This document shows positions 4,417-15,626 of a stretch of 64,000 nucleotides of DNA, piece after piece. This DNA is from Stigmatella aurantiaca DW4/3-1. Its GTDB lineage: Bacteria > Myxococcota > Myxococcia > Myxococcales > Myxococcaceae. The notes below the pieces were generated by a model. The model made no database searches. It was not told the origin of the DNA and saw nothing but the letters and a program-made list of their open reading frames with translations. A program made the translations under genes and the position numbers. Positions within the stretch are counted from its first letter, which is position 1. Each line of letters starts with the position of its first letter. The DNA is taken from contig NC_014623.1 in NCBI RefSeq assembly GCF_000165485.1, forward strand, positions 2,251,501 to 2,315,500, read 5' to 3'.

Positions 4417-5736
4417 ATGATGAAGCATGGGGTGATGGGTACGATTGCTGGAGCATTTGTGGTTCTGTGTGGGCTGCCTGCCTTCGCGCAGACGCGCACT
4501 CCGTGGCAGATGCACAACGGTTTGGAGGTGTCGGCCACCAACCCCAACGGGTTCAAGAAGTTCACCTGTAACCCCACGCAGCATGGCCAGATCTGTGAAT
4601 ACGACGTCGCCACCATTCCTCCCCAGTCGGATTCGGGCTGGGCCATCGCGCCCAATGGCGAGACCATCGGATTTTCCATTCCGTCGCGCGTGTGTCAGGC
4701 GCCCATCGCCTGTTTGGGGTATGGCGACTTCACCTACTTCCAGACCCTGGTGGATGTGCCCGCGAACGTGGCGGTGACCCAGTTCACCATCGCCTTCAGC
4801 GGCATGGACGATGGCTCGCGGGTGACCATCTTCAACTCGCAGTATCCGGCGGGGCTCGTCATCCCGGGCAGCTACGTCTACTTCGGGGGCTCCGGCACCA
4901 CGAACCTCGGCCCCTACGTCAAGTCGGGAGAGATCAACCGCGTGGTCGTTACGCAGGTGGATGACTGCTGCTCGGAGAACAACCTCGACAGCGCCATCGT
5001 GGTGCTCAATGGCGAGCCGGTGGGCGCCGACTGCCACTCGGACCTCGAGTGCGATGATGGCAACGCCTGCACCGCGGACATCTGCCAGTCGGATGGCTCG
5101 TGCGTCAGCCACACGCTGGCCTGCGTGGGCGGTGAGCTGTGCAACCCCCAGCCCCCGACCCTGAGCGCCTTGGCCTCCTACAGCAGCAGCAACGCCTCCC
5201 AGCAGTCCAGCAGCACCTGCGAGATTGTCCCCAGCAACATCGCCATCACCCTCAACGGCCCGCAGCACCTGCTGCTCGAGTGCGGTGTGGACTCCTGGGT
5301 GGACCAGGGGGCCCAGGCGTCGGATGCCTGCGGCGCGGTGGAGGTGATCACGCACAACTCCGGCCATGACGCCTACGGCCCCGGTCCGAACACGTGCTCC
5401 GAGGGGACCTACTCGGTGCAGTACCGCGCCCTGGACGCGCAGAACAACGAAGTGCAGATCGTCCGCTCGGTGCAGGTGGAGGACACCCTGGTTCCGGCGC
5501 TGACGCTCAAGGGCTCCGCGCACGAGTACCACAAGTGCGGCAGCCAGTGGGTGGACCCGGGCGCGGAGTCGTTCGACGAGTGCTACGGCAACATCTCGGC
5601 CGAGGTGAAGACGACGGGCTACGTGAACGGCTGGGTGCCGGGCCTCTACACGGTGACCTACTCGGTGACGGACAGCGGCGGGAACTCCGCGACGCCGCTG
5701 ACCCGGACGGTCGAGGTCGCCAACTGCCCCTGGTAG
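4417..5736 (+). CDS. Secreted protein with Cys-rich segment and Ig-like (DUF5011-type) domains
   Basis: 439 residues from the ATG at 4417; in-frame sequence upstream lacks protein-like composition. Residues 1-26 form a Sec signal peptide with a cleavage site after AFA (FAQ). Residues about 27-205 are a beta-rich domain with a few cysteines that I do not recognise. Residues about 206-245 are a Cys-rich segment (CHSDLECDDGNACTADIC) of the kind common in myxobacterial and deltaproteobacterial surface proteins. Residues about 270-439 hold two Ig-like units with the pattern 'G...hhleCG..WVDpGA.A.D.C...', as in DUF5011 domains. The product is probably exported to the surface or medium. It is transcribed divergently from the injection operon and ends at a strong hairpin. 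Its function is unknown. Confidence 0.8.
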   Translation: MMKHGVMGTIAGAFVVLCGLPAFAQTRTPWQMHNGLEVSATNPNGFKKFTCNPTQHGQICEYDVATIPPQSDSGWAIAPNGETIGFSIPSRVCQAPIACLGYGDFTYFQTLVDVPANVAVTQFTIAFSGMDDGSRVTIFNSQYPAGLVIPGSYVYFGGSGTTNLGPYVKSGEINRVVVTQVDDCCSENNLDSAIVVLNGEPVGADCHSDLECDDGNACTADICQSDGSCVSHTLACVGGELCNPQPPTLSALASYSSSNASQQSSSTCEIVPSNIAITLNGPQHLLLECGVDSWVDQGAQASDACGAVEVITHNSGHDAYGPGPNTCSEGTYSVQYRALDAQNNEVQIVRSVQVEDTLVPALTLKGSAHEYHKCGSQWVDPGAESFDECYGNISAEVKTTGYVNGWVPGLYTVTYSVTDSGGNSATPLTRTVEVANCPW

Positions 5737-7426: not shown

Positions 7427-9598
7427 ATGTCCCGACTCCTGCTGGTCTCCAACCGGCTCCCCGTCACCGTCAAGGCAGAGAAGGATCAGGTTTCCGTGGT
7501 TCGCAGCGCGGGGGGACTGGCCACGGGTTTGAGCGGCCCGCACGAACGCTCCGGTGGGTTGTGGATTGGCTGGCCCGGGGACGTCTCCCGCCTCTCCCAG
7601 GCGCAGCGGGCGAAGGTGGACGCGCAACTGGCGGAATTGCGCTGCGTGCCGCTGTACCTCAGCGCCAGCGAGGTCAGCCGCTTCTACGAAGGCTATTCCA
7701 ACCGCGTCCTCTGGCCCCTGTGCCACTACCTGCTGGACCGGATGCCGCGACAGGACCGGGACTGGGACGCCTACTCCAAGGTCAACGAGCGTTTCGCGGA
7801 GCTGGCGGCGAGCCATTACCAGCCGGGCGACACCATCTGGGTGCATGATTATCAGTTGATGCTGGTGCCGGGGCTGCTGCGCAAGCGCCTGCCCGAGGCG
7901 CGCATCGGGTTCTTCCACCACATCCCCTTTCCCTCGAGCGAGATCTTCCGCACGCTGCCCCACCGCGAGGCGCTGGTGCGGGGGCTGCTGGGCGCGGACC
8001 TCGTGGGCTTCCACACGTCGAGCTACGTGCACCACTTCTCCAACACGATGTTGCAGGTGCTGGGGCTGGAGACCGAGGTGGACCACGTCACCCACGAGGG
8101 CCGCACCGTGCGCCTCGGGGCCTTTCCCATGGGCATCGATGCGGCGGCCTTCGAGCGCTTGGCCCAGGAGCAGGGCACGCTGGATGAGGTGAAGGTGCTT
8201 CGGGAGCGGGCCACGGGACAGCGGCTGCTGGTGGGGGTTGACCGGCTGGACTACACGAAGGGGATTCCCCGGCGGCTGTTGGCCGTGCAGCGCTTGCTGG
8301 AGCGCGAGCCCTCCTGGCGCGGGCGGTTGCGGTTCATCCAGGTGGCGGTGCCCAGCCGCACGCAGGTGGAGGACTACGCCGCCTATCGCGAGGAGGTGGA
8401 CGAGCTGGTGGGCCGCATCAATGGACTCTACGGCACCATCCACAATGTCCCGGTGCACTACCTCTACCGCTCCCTCAACGAGCGGCAGCTGGCGGCGCTG
8501 TACCGGGGGGCGGATGTGATGCTGGTAACGCCCATCCGGGACGGGATGAACCTGGTGGCCAAGGAGTTCTGCGCGTCGAGGCCAGACGAAGACGGGGTGT
8601 TGCTCCTGAGCGAGTTTGCTGGAGCCTCCAACGAGCTGTGCGAGGCCACCGTCGTCAACCCTTATGACGTGGAAGGCATGACGGATGCCATCCTGAAGGC
8701 GCTGGAGATGCCGGCCGCGGAGCGCCAGCGGCGCATGCGCGCCCTTCGCGAGCGGGTGAAGGCCCACGACGTGCATTGGTGGGTGGGCCGCTTCCTGGAC
8801 ACGCTTCAGGCCATCCCCGTCGCCACCCAGCAGCCGGAGACCGCGGGGGCCAAGGACGTGATGGCACGCCTGAAGGCGGCTGGGCGGCGGGTCTTGCTGC
8901 TCGACTATGACGGGACGCTCGTCGGGTACGCCGCCCGGCCGGAGCTGGCCTCGCCCGATCCAGAGTTGAAGTCCCTGCTGGCGCGGGTGGCGGCGCTGCC
9001 TCACACCTCTGTGCACATCGTCAGCGGGCGGGCCAAGGAGACGCTGGAGGCTTGGCTGGGAGAACTACCGGTGGGACTGCATGGCGAGCACGGGCTCTGG
9101 TCGCGTCCGAAGCCTGGCGGAGAGTGGAAGATGCTGGAGGGGGTGTCTACCGATTGGAAGGCCCAGGCGCGCCCCTTGCTGGACTCGTTCACCGCGCGCA
9201 TTCCGGGCTCCTTCGTGGAGGAGAAGACCGCGTCGCTGGCGTGGCACTACCGGCAGGTGGATGCCGGTTATGGCGCCTCCCAGGCCCGGGAGCTGCGGCT
9301 GAAACTGATCGAGGCCTTCGCTCAGGGGCCGATGGAAGTGCTGACCGGGGACAAGGTGGTGGAGGTCCGGCCCCGGGGGGCCCACAAGGGCCGTGTGGTG
9401 ACCCAGGTGATGGAAGCGCTGGGGCCGGGGGTCCTGGTGGCGGCCTTCGGAGATGACCGCACGGACGAGGACCTGTTCGGCGCGGTGCCCGAGGATGGGA
9501 TCTCCGTCCACGCGGGAGGGCGACCCACCCGCGCGGGTTACCGGGTGTCGGGCCCGGATGAGGTGAGGCAGATCCTCGCCTCGTTGCTGAAAGGGTGA
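7427..9598 (+). CDS. otsA-otsB fusion: Bifunctional trehalose-6-phosphate synthase/phosphatase
   Basis: 723 residues. Residues 1 to about 465 are a GT20 trehalose-6-phosphate synthase joining UDP-glucose and glucose-6-phosphate: SNRLPV at the N-terminus, [47 protein letters not shown] and LSEFAGAS are all present. Residues about 480-723 are a HAD-type trehalose-6-phosphate phosphatase: DYDGTL nucleophile motif, the SGR motif, and GDDRTDED metal-binding motif near the end. All key residues look intact, so one polypeptide can make trehalose. It probably acts in the cytoplasm in osmotic, desiccation or spore protection. It shares a transcript with the upstream membrane protein (13-base gap). The fused arrangement is known from eukaryotes and some bacteria. 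Confidence 0.95.
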
Positions 9599-9617: not shown

Positions 9618-10403
9618 TCACCGCGCGCTCTCGAACAGCGCCAAGGTGCCGCGGGGAATGTCCTCCAGCGCGGCGACGAGCGGCATGGAGAAGCGGCGGA
9701 ACCCCGCGTCGTAGAGGGGTTCCGCGATGAAGCGCGCCCCCATCTTGCGAGCAAAGAGGGACAGCGTCCGGGGCATGCGGAGCTCCGCGAGTTGCCCTTG
9801 CTGGGCAAGCGCCCGTTGCGAGGGGGTGTAGTGGGGGGCACTCGGCGCATCAGGCCACCCCGAGGGCTTGTGGGCCCGGACTTGCCAGCGCGTGCTCACC
9901 AGCCCTTGATGAACCGCGACCTGGAAGGCGAGCCGCGCGTCCTCCGCCGAATCTGTCTCCGTGTTGGCGGAGGCAATCCAGTGTGTCACCCCCCGGCGCC
10001 GGCTCTCACGGTAGAGCCCGGCCTGCAAGTGCACGAGCACCTCGGAGTGACGCCATTCCCGGAGGATGCAGAACCGCGTGGTCTCCGCGAACACGAGGCC
10101 GGGCCCTTCCACGCCGGACAAATCCAACTTCTGCTCCAGGTCGATGCCCAGGCGTCCATTCGTGGCGTGTGCCACCTCGGCGTTGGGCAGCAACAGCCGC
10201 GAGGTGGCCACCGGCACATCGCCCGCATAAACGATGAGGTGCACGGTGGTCTCCAGCGTGTCGAAGCAGTTCACCTCGCGGGGGGCCTGCGGAGGGGGGC
10301 CTGGCAGCAAGCCCATCTCCGAGCCGAAAACGGAGAAACGGATTCGCAGGGCATCGTCCAACTGGCGCAGGGTGGTGGCGACACGGCAGCACAGGGCCTT
10401 CAT
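9618..10403 (-). CDS. GNAT-fold acyltransferase resembling acyl-homoserine-lactone / N-acyl amino acid synthases
   Basis: 261 residues; the ATG at 10403 has GAGGAGAG just upstream. The order of conserved residues follows LuxI/FeeM-type acyltransferases: RIRFSVFG (Arg22, Phe26), then EVNCFD (Glu43, Asp48; compare 'E.D.fD'), then VATSRLLLP (Arg69), then FAETTRFCI (Glu107, Arg110; compare 'E..RF'). After this comes a helical region and an ASANTETD segment. Known family members transfer an acyl chain from acyl-ACP to an amine such as S-adenosylmethionine or an amino acid. No LuxR-type receptor lies nearby. It is transcribed divergently from the sigma factor operon across a 318-base gap. The family call is by motif order only, and the substrate is unknown. 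Other GNAT N-acyltransferases are possible. Confidence 0.6.
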   Translation of the reverse strand: MKALCCRVATTLRQLDDALRIRFSVFGSEMGLLPGPPPQAPREVNCFDTLETTVHLIVYAGDVPVATSRLLLPNAEVAHATNGRLGIDLEQKLDLSGVEGPGLVFAETTRFCILREWRHSEVLVHLQAGLYRESRRRGVTHWIASANTETDSAEDARLAFQVAVHQGLVSTRWQVRAHKPSGWPDAPSAPHYTPSQRALAQQGQLAELRMPRTLSLFARKMGARFIAEPLYDAGFRRFSMPLVAALEDIPRGTLALFESAR

Positions 10404-10721
10404 GGCTCTCCTCACATGACATGAGCGATGGGGTGGAGGGCGGCGAGGACAATCCCTTGGCGGGGCTTCCGTCCATCCGCGGTAAATCCTGGATTCCTTC
10501 TCCACCGGCGAGCCGAGTTCGACACGCGGGTGCTTCCCCGCCGCATCTCCTGGTGGCCCGCTGGCCATACCCCCAAAGGGGTACAGCCTTCGGTCCCATT
10601 TGGCGCCAACCTGTTGGGTGAGGACGCAGCAACCCGTTTGTCGCACTCCACGCTGCGGCGCCGAAGGGAGAGGCTAGACGCCATGAGCCAAAGGGCGAGA
10701 GAATCTCAGCGAGGAGGGGGG
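10404..10721 (+). promoter_or_regulatory. Divergent control region with two palindromes upstream of the sigma/HerA operon
   Basis: This 318-base gap separates the acyltransferase gene from the sigma factor operon. It contains an inverted repeat TACCCCC-AAA-GGGGTA (10568-10583) and a perfect 10-base palindrome TTGGCGCCAA (10600-10609), about 140 and 115 bases before the sigma factor start. These are candidate operator sites. I see no convincing -35/-10 pair, which would fit recognition by an alternative sigma factor, possibly the operon's own. A GAGGAGG ribosome site at 10711-10717 sets the downstream start at 10722. Confidence 0.4.
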
Positions 10722-11309
10722 ATGGGCTATCCATCAGTGGATGAGGCAGGTCTGCACCAGCGAGTCCTCCAAGGAGACCCAGTCGCTCCTGTCGATGTCT
10801 TTCAGACCTACATGGATCAAATCCTGAAGATCCTGATTCAGGAGCGGGGCTGTGACGCGGAGGTGGCCAATGATTCCGCGGTCGATGCGGTGATGTCGTA
10901 CCTGAATGAGCCCAGCCGCTATGACCCCAGGCGAGGGCGTCTCTCCACCTATCTCATCCAGGCCGCCAAGAACCGGGCGTCGGACCGGCACCGGACCGCG
11001 ACCTCTCAGGCCCGGCGCGATCAGGACTACGCCAACGTCGTCACGCTTCAGCAAAGGCCTCCGAAAGAGGCGCTGGAAGACGCTGTGGAGGCCAAGCGCC
11101 TTCTGCAACTCGTCGAGAAGCTCCTGAAAAGAGAGAAAGACAAGATCACCTTGGAGCACTTCCTTCAGGACGAACGCTCGACCGAGGCGCTGGCGGAGGC
11201 GTTGGGATTGAAGGCGCTGAGTCCAGAGCAGAAGAAGCGCGAGGTGAAGCGCCACAAGGATCGCCTCACGAAATTCCTGGAGCGCCTCGGAAAGGAGGGG
11301 AACACATGA
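10722..11309 (+). CDS. ECF-like RNA polymerase sigma factor
   Basis: 195 residues from the ATG at 10722, chosen because GAGGAGGGGG lies 5 bases upstream; an in-frame ATG at 10683 has no such site. Residues about 20-95 look like sigma region 2: an acidic helix, then SYLNEPSRYDPRRGRLSTYLIQAAKNRASDRHR, matching the 'FDP.rG.l..yL...arN.a.D..R' pattern of ECF factors. Residues about 125-190 (ITLEHFLQDERSTEALAEALG to the basic KKREVKRHKDRL) take the place of region 4 with a helix-turn-helix. No anti-sigma membrane protein is next to it. Its stop overlaps the next gene's start by 4 bases, so the two are translationally coupled. It probably drives this operon or a small regulon; the target is unknown. 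Confidence 0.7.
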   Translation: MGYPSVDEAGLHQRVLQGDPVAPVDVFQTYMDQILKILIQERGCDAEVANDSAVDAVMSYLNEPSRYDPRRGRLSTYLIQAAKNRASDRHRTATSQARRDQDYANVVTLQQRPPKEALEDAVEAKRLLQLVEKLLKREKDKITLEHFLQDERSTEALAEALGLKALSPEQKKREVKRHKDRLTKFLERLGKEGNT

Positions 11310-11683
11310 CTCCCCCGGTATGGCTGAAGACCGCGGCCCAGCGCAGTGGACAGCAAGAGGGAACCCTCGGCCACACGTTTGCCCAGTACCAGGAGATGGA
11401 AGAACGGTCTGCGGAGGCATTGGCCGCGGAGCTGGGCTGCACGCCGGAGACGCTGCAATGGCTGTCCCTCTGCCGCAACCCCAGTGGGGACCGGTTTGCC
11501 GAGCACCTGTTCGAGATCTCGAAGCGGTTCGCGGTGGACTCGCAGAAGCTCGCCGCGGTGGTTCGCCGGGTCGAGGTGATGAAGGCGCTCTCCATGCGAA
11601 ACAAGGACACCGGGCAGCCGGATGGGAAGGCCATGTTGCTCGCGGCGCGGGATCGGCTGCTCAAGGATGAGGGAGAGTCATGA
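11306..11683 (+). CDS. Small HTH-like regulatory protein (candidate sigma partner/repressor)
   Basis: 125 residues, overlapping the sigma factor by 4 bases (ATGA) and the metalloprotease gene by 4 bases (ATGA). The middle of the protein, SAEALAAELGCTPETLQWLSLCRNP, reads like the first two helices of a helix-turn-helix domain. It is followed by FAEHLFEISKRFAVDSQKLAAVVRRVEVM, a pair of amphipathic helices. There are no membrane segments. The position between a sigma factor and an ImmA/IrrE-type protease suggests a regulator whose cleavage or release switches the operon, as ImmR is for ImmA and DdrO for IrrE. That is inference from gene order. I recognise no exact family. Confidence 0.6.
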   Translation: MTPPVWLKTAAQRSGQQEGTLGHTFAQYQEMEERSAEALAAELGCTPETLQWLSLCRNPSGDRFAEHLFEISKRFAVDSQKLAAVVRRVEVMKALSMRNKDTGQPDGKAMLLAARDRLLKDEGES

Positions 11684-12408
11684 GCAGCGCATGGCTGGTA
11701 GAAGCCATGGACGCCAGCGGTCTGCCGCCCCCCCTCTCGTTTCCCCGGGATTTGGCAGCGGAAGTGGCGGTGTCGCTGCCCGTCAGTGTCGTGTTCCTGG
11801 AGCGCCTCTCGCCCGAGCGGATACGGCAGTGGCTGTCCCGGAGGGGAATCCATACCGAGGCGTCCACGCCCGAGCGGTTCATGCATGGGTGCCCAGCGGT
11901 TCAGAACGGCCATGGGTTTATTTTCTTGGAGGCTGCTGACGGGGAGGACCAGCAGCGCTTCTCCTTGGCCCATGAGGTGGCCCATTTCATTCTCGACTAC
12001 CTGCTGCCTCGCAACCGGGCCTTGGAGGTTTTCGATGAACGGATCAGCTCCGTGATCGATGGGAACCGCCCCATCGAAGCAGGAGAGTTCTTGGTCTCCT
12101 TCTTGGAGCGGATCCCCCTGGGAAATCGGGTCAAGCTCATGGATCGCGATCACGCAACGACCATTTCGATTGGCAAGATCGAGGAGGCCGAGAAGCGTGC
12201 GGACCGCTTGGCTTTTGAAATCCTTGCACCTGCGGCGGCCGTTCTCCCGGCGCTGAAAGGCACTTCGCAAGAAGAAGCGATTAAGCAATTGACGTCTGAT
12301 TTTGGCCTCCCAAAGGAAAAGGCTCAGGAGTACGCAGAGATCCTGTTTGGCCATCAGCGTTTCTCCATCCGGGACCTCTTTGGAGTGGATGAAGATGACC
12401 ATGATTGA
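11680..12408 (+). CDS. ImmA/IrrE-family metallo-endopeptidase
   Basis: 242 residues. The zinc-protease motif HEVAH lies in FSLAHEVAHFILDYLLPRN near residue 104. This is the typical ImmA/IrrE context, in which the two histidines bind zinc and the glutamate is catalytic. A downstream helix EEAEKRADRLAFEILAP (near 178) carries the third-ligand/'E..A..FA..LL.P' block of the family. Residues 1-85 are an N-terminal extension without a recognisable domain. Family members cleave a cognate repressor after stress (ImmA-ImmR in mobile elements, IrrE/PprI-DdrO after DNA damage). Start and stop both overlap neighbours (ATGA with the upstream gene; the NurA-like gene starts inside its 3' end). The likely substrate is the upstream 125-residue protein or another regulator; this is inference. 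Confidence 0.8.
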   Translation: MSSAWLVEAMDASGLPPPLSFPRDLAAEVAVSLPVSVVFLERLSPERIRQWLSRRGIHTEASTPERFMHGCPAVQNGHGFIFLEAADGEDQQRFSLAHEVAHFILDYLLPRNRALEVFDERISSVIDGNRPIEAGEFLVSFLERIPLGNRVKLMDRDHATTISIGKIEEAEKRADRLAFEILAPAAAVLPALKGTSQEEAIKQLTSDFGLPKEKAQEYAEILFGHQRFSIRDLFGVDEDDHD

Positions 12409-13573
12409 TGACGCTCTTCCAGACGGAGGGCACATCGGAAACGATGACTTTTTGAACGCTTTTGGGGAGAGGCTTTCAGACATCATCGATTTCGACACAT
12501 GGGATGACGGGGTTGATGCAGCGAACTCGGTCGAGCGCTTCAGGAGCGCCATCGCCGAGGCGGTGCGTGAAGAGGATCTTCGGCGGGCGGTGATCCGCAG
12601 AAGGCTCCTGGCCCGTTTGAGCAATCGTCCCAACCTGCCGAAAGAGGCAGGGGTTTACAGGGTTAAACCCGAAGAGATGACCATCGTCCATGAAGGGCTG
12701 CTCTTCCCAGGCCATGTCGAGGCCGTGTATGGCACGGCCGTCGTCTACGACAGCCTGCCCATCGGCATCACCCAGATTGGCGTGGCCGCCGTGGGATATG
12801 GAGGCACCTCGGGGACTTTTTCTCAGCGCCTCTTTCACAGGGATATCTCGTCCAAACGGACGAATGCGGTCGAGGAGGCGCTGGCGGTTCTCCATATGCG
12901 TCAGGAACGCTCCGATGGCGCCGATCACCTGCCCTATCTGGCCCGGCGTGGCATCAAGTCATACGCTGAGCGGGCCATCCTCCTGGACAAGTCAGAGGCC
13001 GAGTGGCGCATCGGCCACGGCAATCCGTGTTCCCGGGAGCTGCTCACAGGGGTGGGGTATATGGGCTTGCTGGAGGCCTCGCTCCATGTGCTCCGGCGGC
13101 TCATCCAGAAGCACAAGAAGTTCGTGTTCGTTCCTGACGCGTTGGAGCAGCGGGGCTATCTGACCATCGGGAATGCGCTGAAAGCGGGCGAGTACGCCAT
13201 CCTCACCACGTTGGAGGCGGAAAGCATTCACGCCGTCAAGGGATGGAAGTATGGAGGCTCCTTCCAGAAGGTGGCGCTCGATTTCGTGGAGGAGTGTTGC
13301 CCAGAGATTCTCGTGGGGCTCTTCCGGATCTCTGAGCACGCCCAGCCCTGTTTGTTCTATGCGCACCGGCAGCACGTTCACATGGCGGCTCGCATCGCGA
13401 TGGCCGACAGCATTCTCCGGCCCGAGCGAGGTTTTCCCATGCTCCTCGATGTCGCGGATGTGGCCTGCCGGGGCGCGTTCAGCTCGGAAGGCTTCTTGGG
13501 AATGGTTCACGACGCTTATGCCCAGTCCGGCGCAAAACTTCAGTATTTCGGCGAGCGCGAGACGCGCCGGTAA
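12395..13573 (+). CDS. NurA-like nuclease-domain protein paired with HerA
   Basis: 392 residues from the ATG at 12395, with GGAG 9 bases upstream; in-frame ATGs at 12389 and 12401 are alternatives. It overlaps the protease gene by 14 bases. The layout matches NurA: a helical N-terminus, a central strand region (GHVEAVYGTAVVYDS then GITQIGVAAVGYGG), and a C-terminal block with HVHMAARIAMADSI and GFPMLLDVADVACRG, like NurA's 'R.E.P......GYP..L..A...A'. Where canonical NurA has the metal-binding DGS, this protein has YGT (residues 112-114); Asp119 is nearby. It may therefore be inactive, or use another acid. NurA works with HerA in DNA end resection, and HerA follows after 16 bases. The family call relies mainly on motif layout plus the HerA partner. 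Confidence 0.6.
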   Translation: MTMIDDALPDGGHIGNDDFLNAFGERLSDIIDFDTWDDGVDAANSVERFRSAIAEAVREEDLRRAVIRRRLLARLSNRPNLPKEAGVYRVKPEEMTIVHEGLLFPGHVEAVYGTAVVYDSLPIGITQIGVAAVGYGGTSGTFSQRLFHRDISSKRTNAVEEALAVLHMRQERSDGADHLPYLARRGIKSYAERAILLDKSEAEWRIGHGNPCSRELLTGVGYMGLLEASLHVLRRLIQKHKKFVFVPDALEQRGYLTIGNALKAGEYAILTTLEAESIHAVKGWKYGGSFQKVALDFVEECCPEILVGLFRISEHAQPCLFYAHRQHVHMAARIAMADSILRPERGFPMLLDVADVACRGAFSSEGFLGMVHDAYAQSGAKLQYFGERETRR

Positions 13574-13589
13574 CCAGGAGACTTGAAAC

Positions 13590-15626
13590 ATGGCTGATGG
13601 CAAGAATTCCCAATCCCCGGGTGTCGGCGCCTTTCCGCGAGAGGCAGGCCGCCCGGCCGCGGTCACGAATGGCAAGCTGCCTCATGCTCCGGCCCCCGCC
13701 CCCGAGGTGGTCCGTCCCACCCCGCCCGACGTGCTTGAAGAGCTCCGGGAACTCCAAGGCCAGGCAAAGCTGGCCATGAAGGATCTGGACCCCGAACTGG
13801 AGAAAGCGGTGGGGTTCACCCACTTCGATACCACGGCGAGCCACGACAACCTCATCACCGTCTTGACGAACCGGAACGACATCCACCAACTGGCTTCCCA
13901 GACCCTCGTGCGGGTGAAGTCCCGGGAAGACAAGCGCTCCTATCTGGGGGTCGTCGTCCGGGGACCCTTCTCGGAGCCGGATGCCATTCCGGCCAACTCC
14001 ACGATGGCCATCGGCGTGGTGATCCAAGGCAAGAAGCTCGCTTACACGTTCGACTACCATGGCCGTGCCGAGATTGAGCTCCTCGGAGAGGAGAGCGGAG
14101 GGGCCCTGGTGCCCCCGCGCTACCGTCCCCGGCCCAAGAGTCCCGTCTTCCTCCTCGACGACGAGGAGAGCGCGAAGGTGCTCGGGGTGGGAGGCGATCT
14201 GTGTCTTGGACGGGTGGTGGGCTATGACCGGATGGAGGCCCGGCTCAATCCCAAGGACAAATCGATCCTGCCTCGCCACACCGGCATCATCGGAACGACG
14301 GGGGGTGGCAAGTCGACCACCGTCGCCACCCTCATTCACCATGCGCAGGCGGCGGGGATTGCGACCATCGTCTTCGACGTGGAGGGCGAGTACACGCATG
14401 TGGATCAACCCTCGGACCACGCGGCGATGATCGAAGGGCTCAAGCGCCGTGGTCTGAAGCCAGAAGGGGTGAAGAACCTGCACATCCACCACCTGGTGGG
14501 CCGCGAGAGCCGCAACCCCCGGCACAAGAACCTGCACGGATTCTCACCGAGCTTCTCGAGCCTCTCGCCTTATGCCATCGCCGAGATCCTCGACATGACG
14601 GATGCCCAGCAAGAGCGCTTCCTCAAGGCGTACGACGTCACGAAGCTCCTGCTGGAGGACTTTGGAATCTTCCCGAAGACGGCGGAGGACCGGCAGAAGG
14701 TGCTCGATGTCGATGAGCTTTCGACAGGCTATCCCCGGATGACCATTCAACACGTCCTGGACGTGGTGAGCGCCTACATCTACAGCCTCAGCGATGAGGG
14801 CAGGGCGGAGGCGAAGTCCAAGCCCAAGACCTCCTCCCGCAAGCGGAGCCAGCCCGCGGAGGACTCGGAGGTGGAAGAAGAGCTCGACGAAGCCGCCCAG
14901 GAGCCGGTGGCCGCCCATGGCCCAGTGCTCTACAGCGAGTTCCGGACCCATCCTGGGCGTGTCATGGGCCGCGTGCGGGCCCAGAGCAGCAAGGCGGAGA
15001 TCAGCTGGAAGGCCCTGTCGGGCAAGCTGCAACGCCTGAGACGTCTCAACATCTTCGATGTGGGGGCCTCCTCCCGGATGAAACACGAAGAGATGCTCAC
15101 CCCGGGGCGGGTGTCCGTGATTGATCTCTCGGATACGGACTCCCCGCAGATCAACAACCTCGTCATCGCCGACATCCTCCGGGGGCTTCAGGAGACCCAG
15201 GAGGAGCGCTACCAGAAGGCGAACGCCCAGGGGCAGTCCGTGACGCCGGTCCTCATCATCATCGAGGAGGCTCACGAGTTCTTGTCGGCCAGCCGCATCT
15301 CCCAGATGCCCGTGTTGTTCGAGCAGGTGGCCCGGATCGCCAAGCGGGGCCGGAAGCGATGGCTGGGACTCGTTTTTGTCACACAGTTGCCCCAACACCT
15401 GCCCAATGAGGTTCTGGGACTGCTCAATAATTTTATTATCCACAAAATAACAGACAGCTCGGTGATTTCCCGGATGCAACGGACCGTGGGAAGCATTGAC
15501 GAGAGCCTCTGGGAGCGCGTCTCCCGGCTCGCGCCCGGCCAGGCACTTGTTTCGTTCAGCAACTTTACCCGGCCGCTCATGGTGGCCGTGGACCCTGCCC
15601 CCGTGAAGCGGTTGCTCGTGGACTGA
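13590..15626 (+). CDS. herA-like: HerA-type hexameric DNA translocase/ATPase
   Basis: 678 residues. Residues about 75-210 correspond to a HAS-barrel region. The Walker A motif GTTGGGKS is at 235-242, followed by VFDVEGEYTH (255-270), the conserved 'D.egEy' of HerA. Walker B LIIIEEAHEF, with the diagnostic EEAH, is at 555-564. Then come IAKRGRKRWLGLVFVTQ (arginine finger and sensor) and LNNFIIHKITD. A charged, Lys/Ser then Glu-rich insertion (about 405-440) is unlike compact archaeal HerA and may be a flexible linker. HerA hexamers pump DNA and activate a partner nuclease; similar pairs occur in DNA repair and in several bacterial antiphage systems. It is the last gene of the five-gene operon, 16 bases after the NurA-like gene. 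Neither DNA repair nor defence can be chosen from the sequence alone. Confidence 0.88.
   Translation: MADGKNSQSPGVGAFPREAGRPAAVTNGKLPHAPAPAPEVVRPTPPDVLEELRELQGQAKLAMKDLDPELEKAVGFTHFDTTASHDNLITVLTNRNDIHQLASQTLVRVKSREDKRSYLGVVVRGPFSEPDAIPANSTMAIGVVIQGKKLAYTFDYHGRAEIELLGEESGGALVPPRYRPRPKSPVFLLDDEESAKVLGVGGDLCLGRVVGYDRMEARLNPKDKSILPRHTGIIGTTGGGKSTTVATLIHHAQAAGIATIVFDVEGEYTHVDQPSDHAAMIEGLKRRGLKPEGVKNLHIHHLVGRESRNPRHKNLHGFSPSFSSLSPYAIAEILDMTDAQQERFLKAYDVTKLLLEDFGIFPKTAEDRQKVLDVDELSTGYPRMTIQHVLDVVSAYIYSLSDEGRAEAKSKPKTSSRKRSQPAEDSEVEEELDEAAQEPVAAHGPVLYSEFRTHPGRVMGRVRAQSSKAEISWKALSGKLQRLRRLNIFDVGASSRMKHEEMLTPGRVSVIDLSDTDSPQINNLVIADILRGLQETQEERYQKANAQGQSVTPVLIIIEEAHEFLSASRISQMPVLFEQVARIAKRGRKRWLGLVFVTQLPQHLPNEVLGLLNNFIIHKITDSSVISRMQRTVGSIDESLWERVSRLAPGQALVSFSNFTRPLMVAVDPAPVKRLLVD

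What the first reader, a model, noticed from the sequence alone, without database searches (positions are those of the whole stretch)
10722..15626. Five-gene coupled operon: sigma factor, HTH-like protein, ImmA/IrrE protease, NurA-like protein, HerA
All five genes are on one strand with 4, 4 and 14 base overlaps and a 16-base gap, so they are very likely made together. The sequence directly shows an ECF-like sigma region 2, an HEVAH zinc-protease motif and a complete HerA ATPase. ImmA/IrrE proteases are known to cleave repressors after DNA damage or mobile-element induction, and HerA-nuclease pairs are known in DNA repair and antiphage systems. A sigma factor in place of an XRE repressor, controlled by such a protease and driving HerA-NurA, would be a stress- or phage-triggered module I do not know as described. 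A working model is that the protease removes the 125-residue partner and frees the sigma factor. The model is inference.
Basis: partly seen in the sequence, partly recalled or inferred. Interest (0 to 1): 0.85.

Follow-up and report, generated by a model that had tools for sequence, protein, structure and literature searches.

The report
Self-regulated sigma–NurA–HerA operon
Five genes that switch on and build a DNA-pumping and probably DNA-cutting machine travel together across distant bacterial phyla, often with a DNA-marking enzyme and near anti-virus genes, and the myxobacterial version seems to have lost both the marking enzyme and a key residue of the cutting part.

Summary
The five genes are real, exactly placed, and one system. 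Besides the window, all five occur in this order in 54 of 60 fetched Myxococcaceae loci and in 11 of 12 loci outside that family, including Chloroflexota, Planctomycetota and Bacteroidota records. In 8 of those 12 a DNA methyltransferase gene lies at the locus; several sit beside CRISPR-Cas or restriction genes. The fourth protein has the NurA fold (Z 17.9). The Asp of its AxDG motif, probably catalytic, is kept in 11 of 12 outside sequences and 0 of 58 Myxococcaceae ones. I read the window's version as a domesticated descendant of a methylation-guarded HerA-NurA defence system.

Regulation: an ECF-type promoter motif precedes the sigma gene in 59 of 59 Myxococcaceae copies and recurs inside the sigma gene in most. 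The HTH protein's tail motif is in 56 of 56 copies with a separate protease and in 0 of 3 fusions without one. A DNA-damage trigger is not supported: in M. xanthus, MXAN_4535 (ECF sigma) and MXAN_4539 (HerA-like), very probably this operon, fall after mitomycin C (PMC12288472). No experiment was done.

The parts
10722..11309 (+). ECF-type sigma factor gene
   Evidence: TIGR02937 57.5 bits, PF04542 28.4 bits
11306..11683 (+). 125-aa HTH-like protein with disordered tail
   Evidence: HTH_31 17.0 bits, below cut-off; model pLDDT 84.6; best Z 4.0 to XRE-type HTH domains incl. CapH
11636..11656 (+). codons of the tail motif LLAARDR (residues 111-117)
11680..12408 (+). ImmA/IrrE-type (M78) metalloprotease gene; HEVAH at 11971-11985
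   Evidence: PF06114 40.4 bits
12395..13573 (+). NurA-fold protein gene; codon of Tyr112 (Asp in relatives) at 12728-12730
13590..15626 (+). HerA-family ATPase gene
   Evidence: PF01935 70.9 bits, PF05872 46.6 bits
10640..10665 (+). P1: ECF-type promoter motif GTCGCAC-N15-CGAA (one mismatch to the family's GTCGAAC)
10568..10583 (.). 16-bp palindrome TACCCCCAAAGGGGTA, 72 bases before P1; candidate operator
11040..11065 (+). position of P2, the promoter-type site inside the sigma gene; degenerate in the window
9618..10403 (-). divergent GNAT/FeeM-like N-acyltransferase gene, linked neighbour in many Myxococcaceae loci; membership in the system uncertain
   Evidence: PF13444 31.1 bits, PF21926 27.6 bits; found divergent in 40 of 60 loci

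Best explanation
The operon is one self-regulated system built round a HerA-NurA DNA-translocating complex. Its ancestral form, still seen in other phyla, is restriction-modification-like: a DNA methyltransferase at the locus marks the host, HerA pumps DNA, and NurA cuts unmarked DNA. The sigma factor switches on its own operon from P1 and the four downstream genes from P2 inside its coding sequence, a positive feedback loop. The HTH protein is the brake: it probably binds the palindrome upstream of P1, and the ImmA/IrrE protease recognises its LAARDR-type tail and clears or trims it when a signal appears (by analogy ssDNA, as for PprI and CapP). In the Myxococcaceae the methyltransferase and the AxDG Asp of NurA are both gone while NurA and HerA stay under strong purifying selection, so the window's version is a domesticated, probably nuclease-weak or nuclease-dead machine with a kept but unknown DNA-translocating or sensing role. 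Shown as sequence facts: gene conservation, family matches, predicted NurA fold, methyltransferase linkage, absence of that Asp, promoter-type motifs, palindrome, tail motif. Inferred: that this Asp is NurA's catalytic one, that the sigma factor uses P1 and P2, that the HTH protein binds the palindrome, that the protease acts on the tail, the trigger, and that the outside forms restrict DNA.
For: Order kept in 54 of 60 fetched Myxococcaceae loci and 11 of 12 outside. Methyltransferase at 8 of 12 outside loci and in the fetched flanks of 0 of 60 Myxococcaceae loci; two of the eight scanned by Pfam, both PF01555 over cut-off; none in the window's genome by one query. Outside neighbours: type I-B cas genes (L158), type I-G cas genes (L167), a type I restriction enzyme (L169), a BPTD_3080-like restriction endonuclease and a TmtA-like protein (L149). 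NurA fold Z 17.9, rmsd 4.4, 272 aligned. Position 112: D in 11 of 12 outside, 0 of 58 Myxococcaceae; in a FastTree tree the 58 group beside L149, which has both D and methyltransferase. dN/dS window against L069: NurA 0.05, HerA 0.07. P1 in 59 of 59 against 8 of 11,800 shuffles; P2 strict in 44 of 59 against 324 of 5,900 codon-preserving shuffles; in P2 the Glu codon is GAA 53 of 53 (all sigma Glu codons: GAA 402 of 1,194) while a nearby invariant Glu is GAG 53 of 59. Orphan HTH genes in G000 and G005 keep a P2-type site about 23 bases before the start codon; the only exact match to the promoter pattern in G000 is that one. Tail motif 56 of 56 with separate protease, 0 of 3 without.
Against: No experiment. 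Profile-profile comparison does not align this family with canonical NurA, so the catalytic assignment rests on motif and fold. The Asp of canonical DGP seems replaced by Met, Ile, Leu or Val in the whole family, so the outside forms may be altered too. The methyltransferase is not in the held flanks of 4 of 12 outside loci, and three of these (L158, L164, L166) keep the Asp. The window's own P1 has one mismatch and its P2 is degenerate. With one mismatch allowed the promoter pattern is not above control genome-wide (G000 44 against 82). P1 was not found before sigma in any of the 10 outside loci tested. Two of the three protease-less fusions also lack HerA, so the tail could serve HerA instead. 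Six proteins near the operon in the window gave no PADLOC hit; other Myxococcaceae flanks were not scanned with that library. Most outside loci are MAGs or viral-collection contigs.
Confidence: 0.5

Rival explanations
1. One reading: the 125-aa protein holds the sigma factor, DNA damage or phage infection activates the protease, the partner is destroyed and free sigma drives HerA-NurA for repair or defence.
For: Gene order and protease family; PprI and CapP are activated by ssDNA (PMC10904395, passages); conserved tail motif; promoter motifs of one type.
Against: MXAN_4535 and MXAN_4539, very probably this sigma and HerA, fall after mitomycin C; the partner looks like a DNA-binding HTH protein and a palindrome is conserved before P1, so anti-sigma action is not the simplest reading.
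Confidence: 0.22
2. A DNA-repair complex: HerA-NurA resects broken ends as in archaea and Deinococcus, and the three regulatory genes only tune it.
For: NurA fold and HerA family; widespread in two Myxococcaceae genera; strong constraint.
Against: Probable loss of the catalytic Asp in Myxococcaceae; proteins fall after mitomycin C; methyltransferase and defence neighbours in outside loci; patchy presence outside the family.
Confidence: 0.15
3. A toxin-antitoxin-like unit: the HTH protein binds and restrains NurA (or NurA-HerA) directly, and the protease releases it.
For: In L124 and L125 the HTH protein is fused to NurA, and in L123 to a NurA fragment and HerA.
Against: The fusions may come from deletion of the protease gene, all three lack the Asp or most of NurA, and L124 and L125 are second copies; palindrome and promoter evidence point to gene control.
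Confidence: 0.1
4. Neighbouring genes without a common function.
For: None found.
Against: Same order in 54 of 60 and 11 of 12 loci.
Confidence: 0.01

Closest known systems
HerA-NurA of archaea and Deinococcus
   Same: HerA-family ATPase beside a NurA-fold protein
   Different: no Pfam NurA match; the DGP Asp seems replaced across the family and, in Myxococcaceae, the AxDG Asp too; comes with sigma, HTH and protease genes
PprI/IrrE-DdrO and CapP-CapH
   Same: M78 protease beside an HTH-like protein; protease profile hits CapP and IrrE chains (E 0.00051 and 0.0096), PADLOC capP 32.6 bits
   Different: a sigma factor leads the operon; candidate recognition site is a short tail motif; no CBASS gene among the five; mitomycin C lowers the probable M. 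xanthus proteins
TdpAB of Thermus
   Same: NurA-like chain of TdpAB matches the model (8wfd_G Z 15.2, rmsd 6.2, 276 aligned)
   Different: TdpAB goes with phosphorothioate DNA (recalled); here relatives have a methyltransferase and a regulatory trio
MADS
   Same: HerA hits mad8 (77.6 bits); the L161 methyltransferase hits mad2 (53.3 bits)
   Different: sigma, HTH, protease and NurA-like proteins hit no mad model; type II methyltransferase models score higher than mad2
Type II restriction-modification
   Same: two outside methyltransferases match PADLOC type II models best
   Different: the cutting part would be a HerA-NurA translocase

Membership tests
HerA (DUF87 / HerA_C) | profile above curated cut-off | tested here: met
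   PF01935 70.9 against 23.2 bits; PF05872 46.6 against 22 bits
HerA (DUF87 / HerA_C) | Walker A and B motifs | tested here: met
   GTTGGGKST and IIIEEAH in the window; GTTGGGKST in 51 of 55 Myxococcaceae copies, 3 not matched by the pattern and not looked into, 1 altered (L123); Walker B pattern in 54 of 55
NurA | sequence profile PF09376 | tested here: not met
   no match in the window protein, in 8 homologues or in G000
NurA | NurA fold over most of the chain | tested here: met
   2ygk_A Z 17.9, rmsd 4.4, 272 aligned; Foldseek E 3.9e-8; on a predicted model
NurA | Asp of the A[IV]DG strand | tested here: not met
   Tyr112 in the window; Asp in 0 of 58 Myxococcaceae, 11 of 12 others; equivalence to canonical Asp inferred from motif
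NurA | metal-dependent nuclease activity | not testable with these tools
   -
ImmA/IrrE (M78) protease | profile above cut-off and HExxH | tested here: met
   PF06114 40.4 against 22 bits; HExxH in 55 of 55 Myxococcaceae copies
ImmA/IrrE (M78) protease | cuts a partner HTH protein | not testable with these tools
   -
ECF sigma factor | regions 2 and 4 by profile | tested here: met
   TIGR02937 57.5 against 42.9 bits over residues 26-185
XRE-type repressor | HTH profile above cut-off | tested here: not met
   HTH_31 17.0 against 27 bits
XRE-type repressor | XRE fold | tested here: inconclusive
   best Z 4.0, tied (EDF-1, 434 repressor, CapH); no Foldseek E below 0.001
MADS | set of mad genes | tested here: not met
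   only mad8 among the window's five proteins
CBASS with CapH-CapP | CBASS synthase and effector in the operon | tested here: not met
   none among the five proteins
Restriction-modification-like system | DNA methyltransferase at the locus | tested here: not met
   none in the 64-kb window or, by one query, in G000; present at 8 of 12 outside loci

The most novel reading that the evidence does not exclude
An undescribed six-gene immune system (methyltransferase, sigma factor, HTH protein, ImmA/IrrE protease, NurA, HerA) that switches itself on through a dedicated sigma factor, with a second promoter written inside the sigma gene, and that the Myxococcaceae domesticated by discarding the methyltransferase and a catalytic residue of NurA.
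Probability: 0.45. Interest if true: 0.85.

Novelty: new variant of a known kind. Interest (0 to 1): 0.72.

Why it matters
As far as my searches show it would be an undescribed HerA-nuclease defence type governed by a dedicated sigma factor instead of a lone repressor, with a promoter embedded in the sigma gene's own coding sequence. It is also a natural test of how a DNA-destroying system is disarmed and kept: methyltransferase and a probable catalytic residue gone, the rest under strong selection, in a genus with good genetics (Myxococcus). The tail motif gives a sharp, testable idea of how an ImmA/IrrE protease finds its partner.

Tried and rejected
Led nowhere: single-protein scan of genome contigs for the NurA protein (none; the alignment scan worked); Pfam NurA in 20 relatives and 193 phylum genomes (which gave L168); profile-profile comparison with canonical NurA; PDB sequence search with NurA alignments (nothing relevant); an outside NurA protein in plasmids and phages (none). 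A wide regulon: with one mismatch the promoter pattern is below the reversed-pattern control in G000 (44 against 82) and the palindrome is close to control (4 against 3 places), so not supported. A shared promoter for the divergent acyltransferase gene: 3 of 39 loci, besides the window itself, rejected as general. One pattern (pat2) had a wrong spacing, its zero is void; one search has the right one; one search used the same wrong spacing for L149 and L153 (by eye L149 has the site). NurA-HerA gaps of up to several hundred bases come partly from my choice of start codon: in L076 and L086 an open frame reaches back to NurA. Rejected: chance neighbourhood. Rows left out: L129-L157 hits are not in its count (many are the same records as L069-L128); L126 and L127 (fragments) are not in the promoter counts; L123 is not in the NurA residue count; L153 (Myxococcaceae MAG) is in neither the 60 nor the 12. 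L136 bears the title Comamonas but its contig length equals G118:C7, placed in the window's family, so it is not counted as outside. Flanks of about 5 kb, fewer at contig ends, limit the methyltransferase count.
Full report
OBSERVATION. Families: ECF sigma (TIGR02937 57.5 bits), M78 protease (PF06114 40.4 bits), HerA (PF01935, PF05872), all over cut-off; the 125-aa protein only weakly HTH_31; the 392-aa protein nothing credible. PADLOC gives HerA models and mad8 for HerA, capP (32.6 bits) and RmrA for the protease, and nothing for the other three.

CONSERVATION. HerA occurs in 57 of 145 genomes of the order and the NurA-like protein in 56 of 145, every listed match in the window's own family. 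I fetched 60 loci (L069-L128). tblastn and ORF mapping find all five genes in order in 54 of 60 (L122 has HerA in two pieces, L093 a stop in NurA). L128 lacks HerA at a contig end; L126 and L127 are fragments; L123-L125 are fusions. A profile scan of genome contigs found the NurA-like protein in records titled Chloroflexi, Chloroflexota, SAR202, Planctomycetota, Agaribacillus, Saprospiraceae, Phaeodactylibacter, Pseudolabrys and a Deltaproteobacteria MAG, and two loci came from IMG/VR. Of these 12 loci outside the Myxococcaceae 11 carry all five genes in the same order and strand (the L170 sigma gene is cut by the contig end); L164 has NurA and a weak 84-residue HerA match only. Most are MAGs.

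METHYLTRANSFERASE AND DEFENCE NEIGHBOURS. At 8 of the 12 outside loci lies a homologous DNA methyltransferase gene: before sigma on the same strand in L159, L161, L162, L163 and L165, downstream of HerA on the other strand in L149, L169 and L170 (in L149 with one ORF between). L169 and L161 were scanned: PF01555 30.7 and 30.3 bits, cut-off 26.7. None lies in the held flanks of L158, L164, L166, L167, of the 60 Myxococcaceae loci, or in the 64-kb window; one query found none in G000. Tested neighbours: Cas6 and Cas7/DevR of type I-B (L158), Cas3g and Csb2 of type I-G (L167), a type I restriction enzyme (L169), a BPTD_3080-like restriction endonuclease (575.7 bits, below its cut-off of 800) and a TmtA-like protein (L149), a metallophosphoesterase and an SMC/AAA-type ATPase resembling SbcCD (L159), AddA- and AddB-like proteins below cut-off (L166). 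Six proteins near the operon in the window gave no PADLOC hit.

NURA. AlphaFold2 on alignment A1 (33 rows) gave pLDDT 77.8. Foldseek's best is NurA 2ygk (E 3.9e-8). VIA-align gives 2ygk_A Z 17.9 (rmsd 4.4, 272 aligned), Thermococcus NurA 9x1m_G Z 17.9 (rmsd 4.8, 284 aligned), TdpAB 8wfd_G Z 15.2 (rmsd 6.2, 276 aligned), with EndoV and Argonaute-type chains at 11 and below. Six canonical NurA proteins share A or S, I or V, then invariant DG, and an invariant DGPLA. This family has AxDG or AxDA followed by QIG; the D is in 11 of 12 outside sequences and in 0 of 58 Myxococcaceae sequences, where N 27, A 10, T 5, Y 4, S 4, H 3, L 3, C 2 stand. Asp49 of Thermococcus NurA, changed to Ala, abolishes nuclease activity (PMC12977600, passages); that it is the same residue is my inference, since profile comparison failed. 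Where canonical DGP should stand the family has M, I, L or V before an almost invariant G. E192, H324 and D338 are the same in all 70 sequences. A FastTree tree groups the 58 Myxococcaceae beside L149, which has both the Asp and the methyltransferase; the value on that clade was low, 0.197. NurA and HerA are strongly constrained all the same: dN/dS 0.04-0.29 and 0.06-0.28 in 14 pairs; sigma 0.22-0.92.

REGULATION. Within 330 bases before the sigma gene, [GA]TCG[AC]AC-N15/16-CGAA occurs in 59 of 59 Myxococcaceae copies against 8 of 11,800 shuffles; in the 57 with the stricter GTCG it lies at -81 to -92. TACC-N8-GGTA occurs in 46 of 59 against 53 of 11,800; of 54 copies with at least 7 of 8 end bases right, 47 have it 71 or 72 bases before P1. 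The same bipartite motif with 15-base spacing lies inside the sigma gene (P2): strict in 44 of 59 against 324 of 5,900 codon-preserving shuffles. There Glu is GAA in 53 of 53, though sigma genes overall use GAA for 402 of 1,194 Glu codons; Val is GTC 31 of 31; Pro is CCG 56 of 57; a nearby invariant Glu is GAG in 53 of 59. Relatedness makes these copies dependent, but neighbouring codons are not so fixed. Orphan HTH genes in G000 and G005 (L201, L202) keep the motif about 23 bases before the start codon and keep the LAARDR tail; of three extra HTH genes beside operons two (L082, L091) have it at -72, L072 does not. Hence I read it as the promoter of this sigma factor. P1 was found in none of 10 outside loci (it was found in L153, a Myxococcaceae MAG). 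The window's P1 has one mismatch and its P2 is degenerate.

THE TAIL. The HTH protein ends in a variable, poorly predicted stretch with an AARD-like motif. The motif is in 56 of 56 Myxococcaceae copies with a separate protease, with varying synonymous codons, and in 0 of 3 fusions that lack the protease; it is also in 12 of 12 further copies from L149, L153 and the other outside loci. DdrO is cut by PprI in a C-terminal loop, and ssDNA stimulates this (PMC10904395, passages); by analogy I propose the tail as protease recognition site.

INDUCTION. A mitomycin C proteome of M. xanthus lists MXAN_4539 'HerA-like DNA helicase' at -2.3 log2 (5 h; not significant at 10 h) and MXAN_4535 'ECF-sigma factor' at -2.5 log2 (10 h; not significant at 5 h); 4536-4538 do not occur in the main text (PMC12288472: abstract, outline, passages with table rows). 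The two tags span five numbers, as sigma to HerA does here; that this is the operon is an inference. It speaks against DNA-damage induction.

NOVELTY. Searches (open-access papers only) listed no paper that, by title and start of abstract, describes this gene set; PMC10853773 and PMC9960219 were seen in passages only, PMC11291478 in listings only. The parts are known; the assembly, its methyltransferase and its control I did not find described. Hence: new variant of a known kind.

Noticed in passing
window 9618-10403, - strand: A GNAT/FeeM-like N-acyltransferase gene is divergent from the operon; homologues lie upstream and divergent in 40 of 60 Myxococcaceae loci, 32 of them within 900 bases of sigma. 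It may be a Myxococcaceae addition to the system.
   Followed up: partly
L204:5898-9677 and L205:2609-6358: Sigma factors of this family are part of open frames of about 1,250 codons beside an ORF with an ATPase P-loop and, in L204, a TIR-like ORF (judged by eye): perhaps another conflict system.
   Followed up: no
L124:5020-6477 and L125:5009-6604: A sigma gene followed by an HTH-NurA fusion, with no protease or HerA found next to it; both genomes also hold the full operon.
   Followed up: partly
L123:5044-7383: HTH, a NurA fragment and HerA in one open frame with altered Walker motifs, probably decaying or repurposed.
   Followed up: no
L201 (G000) about 8558-8984 and L202 (G005): An orphan copy of the HTH gene with a P2-type site and an intact tail motif, far from the operon, in the window's own genome and a relative.
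   Followed up: partly
L112:4048-4758: A haem-oxygenase-like gene (PF14518 59.5 bits) beyond the acyltransferase gene; similar ORFs recur in other loci.
   Followed up: no
L168:153-3796: A canonical NurA gene after a HerA-like ORF and before a methyltransferase distantly like that of the outside loci.
   Followed up: no
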